From: Thermoleophilaceae bacterium
Lineage (GTDB): Bacteria > Actinomycetota > Thermoleophilia > Solirubrobacterales > Thermoleophilaceae
NCBI GenBank assembly: GCA_019683805.1
Contig: JADGHQ010000006.1
Location: 1-64,000, forward strand
DNA: 64,000 bases
Direction of reading: 5' to 3'
The notes under the pieces were generated by a model. That model had not been told where the DNA came from. It saw only the letters and a list, made by a program, of their open reading frames with translations, and did not search any database. Shown here piece after piece: positions 32,371-56,183 of this stretch. Within the stretch, counting starts at the first letter, position 1. Each line of letters begins with the position of its first letter. Both the position numbers and the translations under genes were made by a program.

Positions 32371-32940
32371 CTACAGGCCCGCGGGGTGGCGCGCGCGGAA
32401 GCCCCGCGTGGGCCGCCTCACGTCCCAGCGCGGCCCGCTGCCCGGCTTCGCGCCGAGCCTGCGCGCGGTCGCAGTGCGGTAGCCGGTGTCGAACCGCAGC
32501 CCCGCGATCACCACGAACGCGTGGCCCCGGCTCGTGTAGACGGTGATCCACTTGCCGCGGCCGCGCTCTCCCCAGTGCATGAAGGCGCGCGAGTCGAGCG
32601 GCGAGTCGAGCAGCCCCGCGCCGTGGAGCGCGTAGCTGACGGCGCCCGAGCAGTCGTAGGCCGAGTCGTGGAAGCCGCGGCGGTGGCCGCCGCCGTACCG
32701 GTACGGCTTCGTGACGATCTCGTTGGCCGCGTCGATCGCCGCGACGACCTCTGGCGGCGCGTCGGCGGGCGGGATCGCGATGCCGTCGATCAGCTTCGCC
32801 TTGCCCGCCGGGCGGAACTGCGGGTCGGTCGGCGACACCCCGCCGTTGGCGGCTTGCGCGGAGGCGACGGCCGGCAGCATGAGCGCGAGCACGCACAGGG
32901 CTGCAACGACCGCAGGCGCTATGTGACGCGGCGTCGTCAA
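32371..32940 (-). CDS. secreted NlpC/P60-type peptidoglycan hydrolase
   Basis: A 189-residue exported protein: signal peptide at residues 1-30 (hydrophobic VVAALCVLALMLPAVASAQA), then a C-terminal NlpC/P60-like domain with the nucleophile Cys97 in YDCSGAVSYAL and His140 in RGHAFVVIAG. It should cleave cell-wall peptides. It is preceded by a c-di-AMP riboswitch, the classic control of wall hydrolases in actinobacteria. The TTG start at 32940 is supported by the position of the signal peptide and by a GAAAGAGA purine stretch just upstream, which is also the last strand of the riboswitch. Confidence 0.85.
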   Translation of the reverse strand: MTTPRHIAPAVVAALCVLALMLPAVASAQAANGGVSPTDPQFRPAGKAKLIDGIAIPPADAPPEVVAAIDAANEIVTKPYRYGGGHRRGFHDSAYDCSGAVSYALHGAGLLDSPLDSRAFMHWGERGRGKWITVYTSRGHAFVVIAGLRFDTGYRTATARRLGAKPGSGPRWDVRRPTRGFRARHPAGL

Positions 32941-33066
32941 GGTCTCTTTCGAACGCCTGCGGGGTTAGCTGACGGGCTCGCGCTGAAAGAGCTCGCGCGC
33001 CTCTCCTCAACGGAGAGATTCGCCCCAGAACTTGGTTCCCCCGCTCCGCTCTCGCGGATTCGGCGT
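32941..33066 (-). promoter_or_regulatory. c-di-AMP riboswitch (ydaO-yuaA type)
   Basis: On the minus strand the leader contains the ydaO core blocks in order: GGGGGAACC, GGGGCGAATC, then GCGCGAGCCCGTCAGCTAAC followed by CCCGCAGGC. A CTCTTTC segment (32985-32991) is complementary to GAAAGAG (32943-32949), which lies only a few bases before the TTG start of the NlpC/P60 gene. So the closing strand of the aptamer appears to be the ribosome binding site, which suggests control of translation: ligand-stabilised pairing would hide it. The family and its link to wall hydrolases are established; the mechanism here is inference. Confidence 0.88.
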
Positions 33067-33073
33067 GGCGGGC

Positions 33074-33079
33074 ACTTTA
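33074..33079 (-). promoter_or_regulatory. -10 box TAAAGT of the riboswitch leader
   Basis: TAAAGT on the minus strand would start RNA near 33067, exactly at the 5' side of the aptamer. Confidence 0.5.
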
Positions 33080-42510: not shown

Positions 42511-43860
42511 CTAGAGGATCGGCAGGTACCTGTCGAGCTCCCACTGGGAGACCTGGATCCTGTACTCCTCCCATTCCTTGCGCTTGATCTCGACGTAGCG
42601 GTTGAACATGTGCTCGCCGAGAGTCCGCAGCACGAGCTCGGACTGGGCGGTGAGCTCGATCGCCTCGCCGAGCGTCTCGGGGAGCTGCTCGATCCCGAGC
42701 CGCTTCCGCTCGTCCGGCGAGAGGTGGTACAGGTTCTTCTCCATCGGCTCGGGCAGCTCGTAGCCCTTCTCGATCCCCTCGAGCCCCGCCATCAGCAGCA
42801 CGGCGAACGTGAGGTAGGGGTTGCAGGCCGGATCGGGGCAGCGCAGCTCCATCCGCGTGGCCTGCTCCTTGCCGGGGTGGTAGAGCGGAACGCGCACAAG
42901 AGCCGAGCGGTTGCGGCGCGACCACGCACAGTAGACGGGCGCCTCGAACCCGGGCACCAGGCGCTTGTAGGAGTTCACCCACTGAGCGAAGATCGACGAG
43001 ATCTCGCGCGCGTGCTTGAGCTGGCCGGCGATGAAGGCCTTGCCCACGTCGGACAGGAAGTACTGGTCGTTGGCGTCGTAGAAGGCGTTGCGGCCGTTCT
43101 TGAAGAGCGACTGGTGGGTGTGCATCCCCGAGCCGTTCTTGCCGAACAGCGGCTTCGGCATGAACGTCGCGTGCCAGCCGTACTTCATGGCGTACTCCTT
43201 CACGACGATCCGGTAGGTCATGCAGTCGTCCGCCATCTTCATCGCGGGCGCGTAGCGCATGTCGATCTCGTGCTGCGACGGCCCGACCTCGTGGTGCGTG
43301 TACTCCACGTGGATGCCGAGCTGCTCGAGCGCGAGCACCGTCTCGCGCCGCACGTCCGAGCCGGCGTCGAGCGCGGTGAGGTCGAAGTAGCCGCCCTCGT
43401 CGAGGATCTCGGGCTTGCCGCCGTCGGGCTTGGCGCTGCGGAAGTAGAAGAACTCCAGCTCGGGCCCGACGTTGAAGGTGTCGAAGCCCATCGCCTCGGC
43501 GCGCTGGAGCGCGCGACGCAGGACGTGCCGCGGGTCACCCTCGTAGGGCTCGCGGCTGGGCGTGACGATGTCGCAGAACATCCGCGCCACGCCCTTGTCC
43601 GCGGGCCGCCAGGGCAGGGTCGCGAACGTGGTCGGGTCGGGCATCGCGATCATGTCCGACTCCTCGATCGCGTTGAAGCCGGTGATCGAGGAGCCGTCGA
43701 ACCCCATGCCTCCCTCGAAGGCGTCGTCGAGCTCCTCCTTGTTGATCGAGAAGCTCTTGAGCTGTCCGAGGATGTCGGTGAACCAGAGACGGATGAAGCG
43801 AATGTCGTGGTCCTCGACCATCGCCTTCACGTCCGCGGCGGTCTTCGGCTGATCGGCCAT
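42511..43860 (-). CDS. glnA: type I glutamine synthetase
   Basis: A 449-residue GSI enzyme: FTDILGQLKSFSI at the N-terminus, the latch GFDGSSITGFNAIEESDM, the metal and ATP sites FNVGPELEFFYF and HHEVGPSQHEIDM, FMPKPLFGKNGSGMHTHQSL, and the C-terminal ELRCPDPACNPYL. Its length and NLYHLSPDERKRLGIEQLPETLGEAIE near the C-terminus suggest the GSI-alpha type; the Tyr in NLYHLSP sits where adenylylation occurs in GSI-beta, so modification cannot be excluded. It makes glutamine for GltB/GltD encoded 6-12 kb away. A GGAAGGAG Shine-Dalgarno precedes the ATG. Confidence 0.95.
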   Translation of the reverse strand: MADQPKTAADVKAMVEDHDIRFIRLWFTDILGQLKSFSINKEELDDAFEGGMGFDGSSITGFNAIEESDMIAMPDPTTFATLPWRPADKGVARMFCDIVTPSREPYEGDPRHVLRRALQRAEAMGFDTFNVGPELEFFYFRSAKPDGGKPEILDEGGYFDLTALDAGSDVRRETVLALEQLGIHVEYTHHEVGPSQHEIDMRYAPAMKMADDCMTYRIVVKEYAMKYGWHATFMPKPLFGKNGSGMHTHQSLFKNGRNAFYDANDQYFLSDVGKAFIAGQLKHAREISSIFAQWVNSYKRLVPGFEAPVYCAWSRRNRSALVRVPLYHPGKEQATRMELRCPDPACNPYLTFAVLLMAGLEGIEKGYELPEPMEKNLYHLSPDERKRLGIEQLPETLGEAIELTAQSELVLRTLGEHMFNRYVEIKRKEWEEYRIQVSQWELDRYLPIL

Positions 43861-44338: not shown

Positions 44339-44905
44339 CTACGCGGCCTGCACGAGCCGGCTCTCCTCGGCCGAGCCGTCGCGCGGCACGTCCGCGGCGC
44401 GCGTCACGAGGTTCCCGAAAGTCGCGAGCGCCACGTGGGCCACGGCCTCGAGGATCTCCTCGTCGGTCCAGCCGGCCTCGCGCGCCTCCTCGATCAGGTG
44501 CAGCGGCGGCGGGGCGTCGACGGTCTCCACGAGCGACTGCACGAAGCGCAGCAGCGCGGCCTCGCGCGGGTCGCGGGACTGGAACCGGCGGGCGAGGGCG
44601 ATCTCGTCGATCCCGAGGCCGGCCTCGCGCGCGGTGCGCGCGAGCAGGCTCATCGCGTACTCGCTGCGCTGGTGCTCGGCGACACCGATCGCGATGCGCT
44701 GCTGGGTCGCCCAGGGCAGGGACCCGTGCCGCAGCTCCGACCGGAAGCGCGCGTAGGCCCTGAGGGCCGCCGGAGCGCCGGCGAGCACGCCGAGGAAGTT
44801 GGAGAGCTGGCCGCCCGTCGAGAGCGCGCCCTTGAGGACTGGAAGGCTCCGCTCGGGCGCCGTCATCTCGTCGTGGATCTGGAACCTGCTCTCCTTGGTC
44901 TTCAT
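44339..44905 (-). CDS. carboxymuconolactone decarboxylase/AhpD-like protein lacking the CxxC site
   Basis: A 188-residue all-helical protein of the CMD/AhpD superfamily: SLPWATQQRIAIGVAEHQRSEYAMSLLARTAREAGLGIDEI aligns with the usual alkylhydroperoxidase block, but the CxxCxxxH site reads SEYAMSLL, so both Cys and the His are replaced. Peroxidase chemistry of the AhpD kind is therefore unlikely; it may be a lactone-decarboxylase-like, binding or sensing protein. ATG 44905 was chosen because the longer frame crosses the promoter and operator. It lies upstream of an HxlR regulator on the same strand. Confidence 0.78.
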   Translation of the reverse strand: MKTKESRFQIHDEMTAPERSLPVLKGALSTGGQLSNFLGVLAGAPAALRAYARFRSELRHGSLPWATQQRIAIGVAEHQRSEYAMSLLARTAREAGLGIDEIALARRFQSRDPREAALLRFVQSLVETVDAPPPLHLIEEAREAGWTDEEILEAVAHVALATFGNLVTRAADVPRDGSAEESRLVQAA

Positions 44906-45081: not shown

Positions 45082-45459
45082 CTAGCGGATCAGCGCGTGC
45101 GGCGCGTGAGGCTTGCCGGGAGGCGGCGTGTCGGCGTGCGCGGTCGCCGCGGCGAGCCCGGCCATGAACAGCCCGAGCGCGACCGCCCAGGCCGCGAAGC
45201 GGTCGGGGCGGGCTCCGATCCGCGGGCGCGCGGCGGGGCGCGGCCGCCGCCTCGGCGGCGTCGGCTGGCCGGCGATCCGCACGGTGCGACGCGGCTGCGC
45301 GGCCGCGCCCGGCCGGAGCTCGCGGACCTCCGCGGCGCCTGCGGGCGGGCCGCTCGCGCGGCGCGCGGGTCGGTCGGAGGAGCGGCGCGGCTCGCGCTCG
45401 AAGGCGTCCCAGGTCCAGGCGTGCTGGCCGGACGCTCTGCGTGCGTGGGCTTGGCTCAT
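45082..45459 (-). CDS. small single-span membrane protein under a c-di-AMP riboswitch
   Basis: A 125-residue protein I do not recognise. Residues 1-85 are polar, Arg/Pro-rich and apparently disordered (WTWDAFEREPRRSSDRPARR at the start of that part), then one hydrophobic segment RFAAWAVALGLFMAGLAAATAHA, then a short Pro/His tail. By the positive-inside rule the long basic part should be cytoplasmic. It directly follows a c-di-AMP riboswitch, so a role in wall or osmotic homeostasis is plausible. Low-complexity composition in such GC-rich DNA is a caution, but the riboswitch and the well-placed Shine-Dalgarno support it being real. Confidence 0.7.
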   Translation of the reverse strand: MSQAHARRASGQHAWTWDAFEREPRRSSDRPARRASGPPAGAAEVRELRPGAAAQPRRTVRIAGQPTPPRRRPRPAARPRIGARPDRFAAWAVALGLFMAGLAAATAHADTPPPGKPHAPHALIR

Positions 45460-45461
45460 CG

Positions 45462-45612
45462 GCTCTCTTTCGTCGGGCCTGCGGGGTTAGCTGACGGACT
45501 CGCGCCGAAAGAGCAGCGCTACGCCGGTTTGCCGGCGATTCGCCCCTGCGGCCTCAGGCCGCGACCGTTGGTTCCCCCGCGCCCCGGGACCACCGGGGCT
45601 TCGGCATTTGCA
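45462..45612 (-). promoter_or_regulatory. c-di-AMP riboswitch (ydaO-yuaA type), second copy
   Basis: The minus strand shows the same ordered core as the copy at 32941: CGGGGGAACC, GGGGCGAATC, GCGCGAGTCCGTCAGCTAAC and CCCGCAGGC. The insert hairpins are larger than in the first copy. CTCTTTC (45507-45513) can pair with GAAAGAG (45465-45471), which sits five bases before ATG 45459 and is the only Shine-Dalgarno candidate, so translational control is suggested again. Confidence 0.88.
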
Positions 45613-45616
45613 GGCG

Positions 45617-45705: not shown

Positions 45706-46188
45706 CTACTTCCCGGCGACGCTTGCCACGTAGGCGGCCACCTTGCTCGCGTTGTCCCCCTCGAGCAGCCCGGGCGGCATGCGGCCCTGGCCGGTCCCGC
45801 CGATGCGGATCGCGTTCAGCACGCGCGCCCTGGTCACCGGCCCGATGCGGTCGAGGTCCGGCCCGGTGACGCCGCGGGCGTTCGCCGCCGCGAGCGTGTG
45901 GCAGGTGGCGCAGGTCTGCACGAAGAGCTGCTTGCCGCCCTTTAACCCGCCGACGTCCTCCGCGCGCGTGTGGGAGGTCGCCCCGAGCGACTGCTCGCGG
46001 GCCGCCACCACGACTGCCGGCACCGCGATGCCCACGCCGACGTACAGCACGAGCATCGTGAGCGTGAACGCACGTCGACCGCGGCTCAGGGACGCGCGGC
46101 GGGCGCGGCCCGGACCGCCCCGGAAGGCGACGAGCAGCACCGCGCCCCCGACGACCACCCAGGCGGCGACGAAGAGCACCACGTCCAT
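45706..46188 (-). CDS. membrane-anchored c-type cytochrome
   Basis: A 160-residue protein with two N-terminal membrane segments (about residues 3-22 and 43-63) and a C-terminal cytochrome c domain: VQTCATCHTL, with haem ligands Cys93, Cys96 and His97, and a distal Met in GQGRMPPGLL. It would pass electrons on the outer face of the membrane, for example between a quinol-oxidising complex and an oxidase, and depends on cytochrome c maturation proteins such as those at the right edge of the window. The ATG lies nine bases after a TACGAT -10 box. Confidence 0.9.
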   Translation of the reverse strand: MDVVLFVAAWVVVGGAVLLVAFRGGPGRARRASLSRGRRAFTLTMLVLYVGVGIAVPAVVVAAREQSLGATSHTRAEDVGGLKGGKQLFVQTCATCHTLAAANARGVTGPDLDRIGPVTRARVLNAIRIGGTGQGRMPPGLLEGDNASKVAAYVASVAGK

Positions 46189-55788: not shown

Positions 55789-55812
55789 AAACCCCCGCGT
55801 GCGCGGGGGTTT
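55789..55812 (-). terminator. rnpB terminator hairpin
   Basis: An 11-bp perfect stem, AAACCCCCGCG with CGCGGGGGTTT, around a two-base centre directly follows the RNase P RNA on the minus strand; it ends in TTT then CCT. It is the strongest hairpin in the window. Confidence 0.75.
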
Positions 55813-55815
55813 CCC

Positions 55816-56177
55816 GTAGCTGGCCTGTAAGCCGGATTCTGTCGTGAGCAGCCATCCATCTCGCCCTCGCGGGCGGGGCTTTCGCCCTGCGGCCGACCTG
55901 GGACTCGGCGGGCAGCGTCGTCGTCCCTGCTTGGCCTTGCACCGGGTGGGGTTTGCCCAGCCGACGTGTCACCACGCCGCTGGTGCGCTCTTACCGCACC
56001 ATTTCACCCTTGCCGGCGGCGGACCTCACGTGAGGGCCCGCCGCTTAGGCGGTGTGTTTCTGTGGCACTTTCCCGCGGGTTTCCCCGGGTCGCTTCCGCG
56101 ACCACCCTGCCCTGCGGTGTCCGGACTTTCCTCGAGAGCCGGTTTTCTCTCCGACCCCCGCGGCTGCTCGGCCAGCA
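55816..56177 (-). ncRNA. rnpB: RNase P RNA
   Basis: The minus strand carries the conserved class A RNase P RNA blocks in order: GAGGAAAGTCCGGACACC (CR I), AGAAACACACCGCC, GGTAAGAGCGCACC, GGTGCAAGGCCAAGCAGGG, and near the 3' end GACAGAATCCGGCTTACAGG (CR V). Length is about 360 bases. It cleaves the 5' leader of tRNA precursors, such as the tRNA-Leu encoded 1 kb away. Both ends are estimates: the 5' end from a good promoter, the 3' end from the terminator hairpin. Confidence 0.95.
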
Positions 56178-56183
56178 GCACCA

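What the first reader, a model, noticed from the sequence alone, without database searches (positions are those of the whole stretch)
45082..45612. c-di-AMP riboswitch in front of an unrecognised one-span membrane protein
The leader contains all core blocks of the ydaO aptamer, but the gene it controls is not a known wall hydrolase or ion transporter: it encodes 125 residues, with a long basic disordered cytoplasmic part and a single membrane span. A riboswitch-controlled unknown gene is a strong functional lead: its product should act in cell-wall or osmotic/potassium homeostasis.
Basis: partly seen in the sequence, partly recalled or inferred. Interest (0 to 1): 0.65.

Follow-up and report, generated by a model that had tools for sequence, protein, structure and literature searches.

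The report
Riboswitch-controlled wall-enzyme anchor lacking its enzyme
A genuine c-di-AMP-sensing RNA switch sits in front of a small, previously unnamed membrane protein that turns out to be the same gene as a membrane-anchored cell-wall enzyme in related bacteria, but with the outer enzyme part missing and the membrane part strongly preserved.

Summary
The riboswitch is real: RF00379 scores 71.9 bits (cut-off 38) at 45462-45616(-), and the 125-aa ORF (45082-45459) starts 3 nt after it. The ORF belongs to a conserved, usually single-copy family with no Pfam or NCBIfam model, found in one order of Thermoleophilia. The riboswitch is kept directly upstream in 48 of 63 genomes with a match. The locus order is conserved: cytochrome c, riboswitch, gene X, (AhpD-like, HxlR), glnA. 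At this same locus, one genus and one further genome of a sister family carry X as the same tail and membrane span followed by PG_binding_1 and RlpA-like DPBB domains; in another family X is an RlpA-like protein with a short tail. The window gene is therefore the anchor-only form of a membrane-anchored, c-di-AMP-controlled wall protein. In close pairs of relatives the span has dN/dS near 0-0.07, so it is probably a specific interaction element, not a remnant. Switching is most likely translational: aptamer loop CUCUUUC pairs with the Shine-Dalgarno GAAAGAG, and the pairing covaries. All eight other riboswitch matches in this genome precede wall-associated genes. What the anchor binds is unknown. 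The riboswitch class and translational mode are known; the gene family and its anchor-only/full-length alternation appear new.

The parts
45462..45616 (-). c-di-AMP (ydaO/yuaA) riboswitch aptamer, RF00379
   Evidence: cmscan 71.9 bits, gathering cut-off 38, model 1-134
45507..45513 (-). aptamer hairpin loop CUCUUUC, 5' side of a pseudoknot with the Shine-Dalgarno sequence
   Evidence: read from sequence; covariation test over 113 riboswitches
45463..45471 (-). GAAAGAGAG: Shine-Dalgarno and 3' side of the pseudoknot
   Evidence: sequence
45082..45459 (-). ORF of 125 aa: basic disordered cytoplasmic tail plus single C-terminal membrane span; anchor-only form of a riboswitch-controlled wall protein
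   Evidence: ORF; family conservation; model; no Pfam/NCBIfam
45274..45291 (-). conserved cytoplasmic motif RRTVRI (residues 57-62), family consensus R-R/K-T-V/I-x-I
   Evidence: alignments, motif scan
45130..45201 (-). membrane span (residues 87-110), preceded by the invariant PDR (residues 85-87)
   Evidence: AlphaFold helix 87-110, pLDDT about 97 at its centre; invariant P, D, R, A, A, L; dN/dS near 0-0.07 in close pairs of relatives
45706..46188 (-). cytochrome c gene, conserved upstream neighbour
   Evidence: Pfam, synteny
44339..44905 (-). CMD/AhpD-like gene, frequent downstream neighbour
   Evidence: Pfam, synteny
42511..43860 (-). glnA glutamine synthetase, conserved downstream neighbour
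   Evidence: Pfam, synteny

Best explanation
A c-di-AMP OFF riboswitch controls translation of a tail-anchored protein. When c-di-AMP is bound, the aptamer loop CUCUUUC pairs with the Shine-Dalgarno GAAAGAG just before the start codon and blocks ribosomes (pairing supported by covariation; ligand dependence and OFF sense inferred from the class). The protein sits with its disordered basic tail in the cytoplasm and its C-terminus outside (inferred from charge distribution and from the composite relatives). It is the anchor-only counterpart of a riboswitch-controlled, membrane-anchored PG_binding_1 + RlpA-like (DPBB) wall protein found at the same locus in relatives (shown by synteny, riboswitch and homology). 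The catalytic part is absent, but the span and the RRTVxI cytoplasmic motif are preserved, so the protein most likely acts by binding a membrane partner of the wall-remodelling machinery (inferred). It would be made, together with the genome's other riboswitch-controlled wall genes, when c-di-AMP is low (inferred).
For: RF00379 71.9 bits, start codon 3 nt after the model end. Loop/SD pairing score over 113 riboswitches is 15.7 against 13.9 (sd 0.31) for swapped partners, 0 of 300 as high; covarying variants include CTCTTTTC/GAAAAGAG, TTCTTTC/GAAAGAA and CTCTTCT/AGAAGAG. Riboswitch directly upstream in 48 of 63 genomes (G141). Locus order conserved across four families. At the same locus X carries PG_binding_1 and DPBB_1 domains in genus g22 and G150 behind the same tail and span, and in family f3 behind a short tail. 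The profile built from short forms only finds the composites' spans at E=6e-7 to 3e-10 in g22 and 1e-8/8e-6 in f3. dN/dS of the segment from PDR onward is 0.00-0.07 in nine of twelve pairs, against about 0.13-0.68 in the tails of those pairs. The eight other RF00379 matches in this genome precede NlpC/P60-like, PGB+NlpC-like, transglycosylase-like, M23, CAP and RlpA-like genes. One diadenylate cyclase is present. A translational c-di-AMP riboswitch with a proposed SD pseudoknot is published for C. glutamicum nlpC (PMC9960051).
Against: No partner is identified and no wall-related activity of the short form is shown. The window protein's own constraint could only be measured against a distant relative (TM-side dN/dS 0.53 with L017, nearly saturated; that stretch includes the variable C-terminal tail). 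Some relatives keep the gene without the riboswitch (for example G018, G067, G027). Whether the outer domains were lost or were gained by fusion is unresolved. SD occlusion by ligand is inferred, not measured.
Confidence: 0.66

Rival explanations
1. The ORF is a decaying remnant of an RlpA-like gene that has lost its outer domains and has no function.
For: Homologous full-length forms exist at the same locus.
Against: dN/dS of the span near 0-0.07 in close pairs of short forms; open frames, start codon and SD kept across four families; no remnant of the outer domains downstream in short-form loci (tblastn E<=0.01 none).
Confidence: 0.07
2. The ORF is a secreted short peptide: residues 87-110 are a late signal peptide cut after AHA, releasing DTPPPGKPHAPHALIR.
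For: The span ends in a signal-peptidase-like AHA in the window copy.
Against: Most relatives stop within a few residues of the span and have no mature part; the tails that exist are variable and the span is the conserved part.
Confidence: 0.08
3. The small ORF is incidental and the riboswitch really controls the downstream operon, chiefly glnA (nitrogen assimilation).
For: glnA is the next gene in several genomes, as close as about 40-120 nt after the ORF (L151, L144, L155, L156).
Against: In family f3 the CMD gene lies on the opposite strand between X and glnA (L123, L130); in the window two genes intervene; the riboswitch ends at the ORF's own SD and start; the translational C. glutamicum switch affected only the first gene (PMC9960051).
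Confidence: 0.08
4. A potassium or osmotic transport regulator, as other ydaO-controlled genes in Firmicutes are transporters.
For: The riboswitch class controls K+ transporters in Bacillus (PMC6488665).
Against: No transporter neighbour in the conserved locus; full-length relatives carry wall domains; all other riboswitch matches in this genome precede wall-associated genes.
Confidence: 0.06

Closest known systems
ydaO/yuaA c-di-AMP riboswitch (RF00379), especially the translational nlpC riboswitch of Corynebacterium glutamicum
   Same: Full-length aptamer match, SD directly after the aptamer, loop complementary to the SD; upstream of an envelope gene.
   Different: Controls a protein without enzymatic domain; the loop/SD pairing is here supported by covariation over 113 riboswitches.
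RlpA-like DPBB_1 (PF03330) proteins with PG_binding_1 (PF01471)
   Same: Same genomic locus and riboswitch; the composite forms share the tail and/or membrane span.
   Different: The window protein ends after the span: neither the DPBB nor the peptidoglycan-binding domain is present.
CwsA-type small single-span cell-wall regulators of mycobacteria (from memory, a lead only)
   Same: Small protein with a cytoplasmic tail and one C-terminal span, linked to wall synthesis.
   Different: No sequence relation was tested or claimed; riboswitch control and RlpA link are not known for it.

Membership tests
c-di-AMP riboswitch (RF00379) | Covariance-model score above the curated cut-off over the whole model | tested here: met
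   71.9 bits against 38, positions 1-134
c-di-AMP riboswitch (RF00379) | Loop to 3'-tail pseudoknot | tested here: met
   CUCUUUC/GAAAGAG in the window; covariation across relatives. The crystallised construct quoted in PMC5393176 has the matching CUCCUUCG/CGAAGGAG
c-di-AMP riboswitch (RF00379) | Binding of c-di-AMP and OFF regulation | not testable with these tools
   A diadenylate cyclase is encoded; binding needs in-line probing
RlpA-like wall protein (DPBB_1) | DPBB domain | tested here: not met
   No Pfam hit in the window protein; it ends after the span
RlpA-like wall protein (DPBB_1) | Orthologous locus (riboswitch, span, neighbours) with DPBB-bearing relatives | tested here: met
New family: riboswitched tail-anchored protein of this order | RR/K-T-V/I-x-I motif plus PDRxAxWA span, one copy per genome, riboswitch upstream | tested here: met

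The most novel reading that the evidence does not exclude
A wall-enzyme anchor has become a free-standing, c-di-AMP-controlled regulator: its membrane span, and its RRTVxI cytoplasmic motif (T with a hydrophobic residue at +3, resembling a kinase/FHA site), bind partners and steer wall hydrolases or synthases. The same riboswitched locus alternates between enzyme-bearing and enzyme-free forms.
Probability: 0.4. Interest if true: 0.65.

Novelty: new variant of a known kind. Interest (0 to 1): 0.5.

Why it matters
c-di-AMP riboswitches in Actinobacteria are known from wall hydrolase genes. Here one controls a conserved protein with no enzyme domain, tied by locus, homology and fusion to an RlpA-like wall protein, which gives a concrete and testable entry point to how c-di-AMP coordinates wall remodelling. 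The strong constraint on a bare membrane span points to an unknown membrane partner. The loop/Shine-Dalgarno covariation also supports a translational mechanism so far proposed from one species.

Tried and rejected
Pfam and NCBIfam on the window protein and relatives: nothing significant; weak CbtB and DUF3999 hits at E about 0.1 were rejected as chance. Looking for remnants of the outer domains downstream of the short forms found none. Loci around glnA in the sister orders held no riboswitch, DPBB or span within 1.5 kb, so they do not polarise loss against gain. GlnA and DPBB trees leave open one early loss with two later regains against several losses. AlphaFold gave only a disordered tail and one helix, so no fold search was run. 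The glnA-operon idea was weighed and set aside.

Full report
The 125-aa ORF 45082-45459 starts 3 nt after the end of the model. The protein has no Pfam or NCBIfam match. AlphaFold on an alignment of 23 relatives gives a low-confidence tail and one helix at residues 87-110.

The genome makes c-di-AMP and uses this riboswitch class for the wall. One diadenylate cyclase is encoded. The genome holds nine RF00379 matches, six above the cut-off and three weaker. The other eight precede NlpC/P60-like, PG-binding plus NlpC/P60-like, PG-binding plus transglycosylase-like, M23, CAP and RlpA-like genes (the NlpC/P60 hits are below Pfam's cut-off). The gene studied here is the only one without a recognised wall domain.

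The ORF is a real, conserved gene. A search of 151 genomes of the order gave matches in 75. A profile from 25 cores gave 64 of 299 genomes of the class, 63 of them in the same order, nearly always one copy per genome. Named relatives are Thermoleophilaceae/Solirubrobacterales metagenome bins. The consensus is R-R-T-V/I-x-I-x-G, an arginine-rich linker, then R-P-D-R-x-A-x-W-A-x-x-L-G-x-F-L-V-x-x-A. Most members stop at or within a few residues of the span. In close pairs the segment from PDR onward has dN/dS of 0.00-0.07 in nine of twelve pairs, while the tails of those pairs show about 0.13-0.68. A merely hydrophobic anchor would not be held that tightly (inference).

The riboswitch belongs to the gene. 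It lies directly upstream, usually 0-15 nt before the start codon, in 48 of the 63 genomes of the order; two of the remaining fifteen loci are cut by a contig end (riboswitches confirmed with the covariance model for many of them, the rest by a sequence profile; G141 counted). With about nine riboswitches per genome a random gene would have well under a 1% chance. The surrounding order, cytochrome c, riboswitch, X, (CMD, HxlR), glnA, is conserved across four families.

The key result is what X is elsewhere. In genus g22 (G009, G093, G096, G110, G130, G141) and in G150, X has the same tail and span and continues into PG_binding_1 and RlpA-like DPBB domains. In family f3, X at the riboswitched locus before glnA is an RlpA-like protein with a short tail, with or without PG_binding_1 (positions; sequences). 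A profile built only from short forms recognises the spans of the composites (E=6e-7 to 3e-10 in g22, 1e-8 and 8e-6 in two f3 genomes). The window gene is therefore the anchor-only form of a membrane-anchored, riboswitch-controlled wall protein. Whether the outer part was lost, or was fused on twice, is unresolved (trees; sister orders lack the riboswitched gene near glnA). Either way the linkage to wall remodelling stands.

How it likely works. The aptamer hairpin loop CUCUUUC (45507-45513) is complementary to GAAAGAG in the Shine-Dalgarno sequence (45465-45471). Over 113 riboswitches of the order the pairing score is 15.7 against 13.9 with sd 0.31 for swapped partners, none of 300 shuffles as high, with clear compensatory variants. 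This pseudoknot position matches the crystallised aptamer sequence (PMC5393176). A translational c-di-AMP riboswitch with a similar proposed pairing has been reported for nlpC of C. glutamicum (PMC9960051), while Streptomyces rpfA is reported as transcriptional (PMC10117811). I infer that c-di-AMP stabilises the pairing and turns translation off. When c-di-AMP falls, the anchor protein and the wall hydrolases are made together. What the anchor binds is unknown. The invariant span, and the threonine motif T-V/I-x-I/L that is repeated two or three times in some relatives, are the best candidates for interaction sites; the resemblance to a kinase/FHA site is a hypothesis only.

Membership. It is a c-di-AMP riboswitch by sequence and structure; ligand binding was not tested. 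It is not an RlpA protein, since the DPBB domain is absent; it is the orthologous locus of one. No paper found in the held library describes riboswitches in Thermoleophilia or an RlpA gene under a c-di-AMP riboswitch; the library lacks most subscription papers.

Noticed in passing
32939-33075 (-), gene 32371-32940: A second, stronger c-di-AMP riboswitch (88.9 bits) in front of an NlpC/P60-like wall peptidase gene with a TTG start.
   Followed up: partly
L077-L082 (short-form proteins of genera g20 and g43): The RT[VI]x[IL] motif occurs two or three times in the disordered tail; T with a hydrophobic residue at +3 resembles kinase/FHA recognition sites.
   Followed up: partly
L011, L012, L020, L036, L090: Relatives that keep the gene (L012, L020, L036 and L090 at the same locus) but have no detectable riboswitch upstream.
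   Followed up: partly
L195 (G000:C29) and L008 (G000:C60): This genome carries two other RlpA-like genes behind weak, sub-cut-off c-di-AMP riboswitches, with a different N-terminal domain.
   Followed up: partly
L151, L144, L155, L156; window 42511-43860: glnA lies about 40-125 nt after the short gene in several genomes, so some co-expression of glutamine synthetase with a c-di-AMP-controlled gene is possible.
   Followed up: partly
55812-56179 (-); L022:230-611, L023:2645-3067: RNase P RNA (class A); rnpB also lies within about 1 kb of the riboswitched gene in L022 and L023.
   Followed up: no
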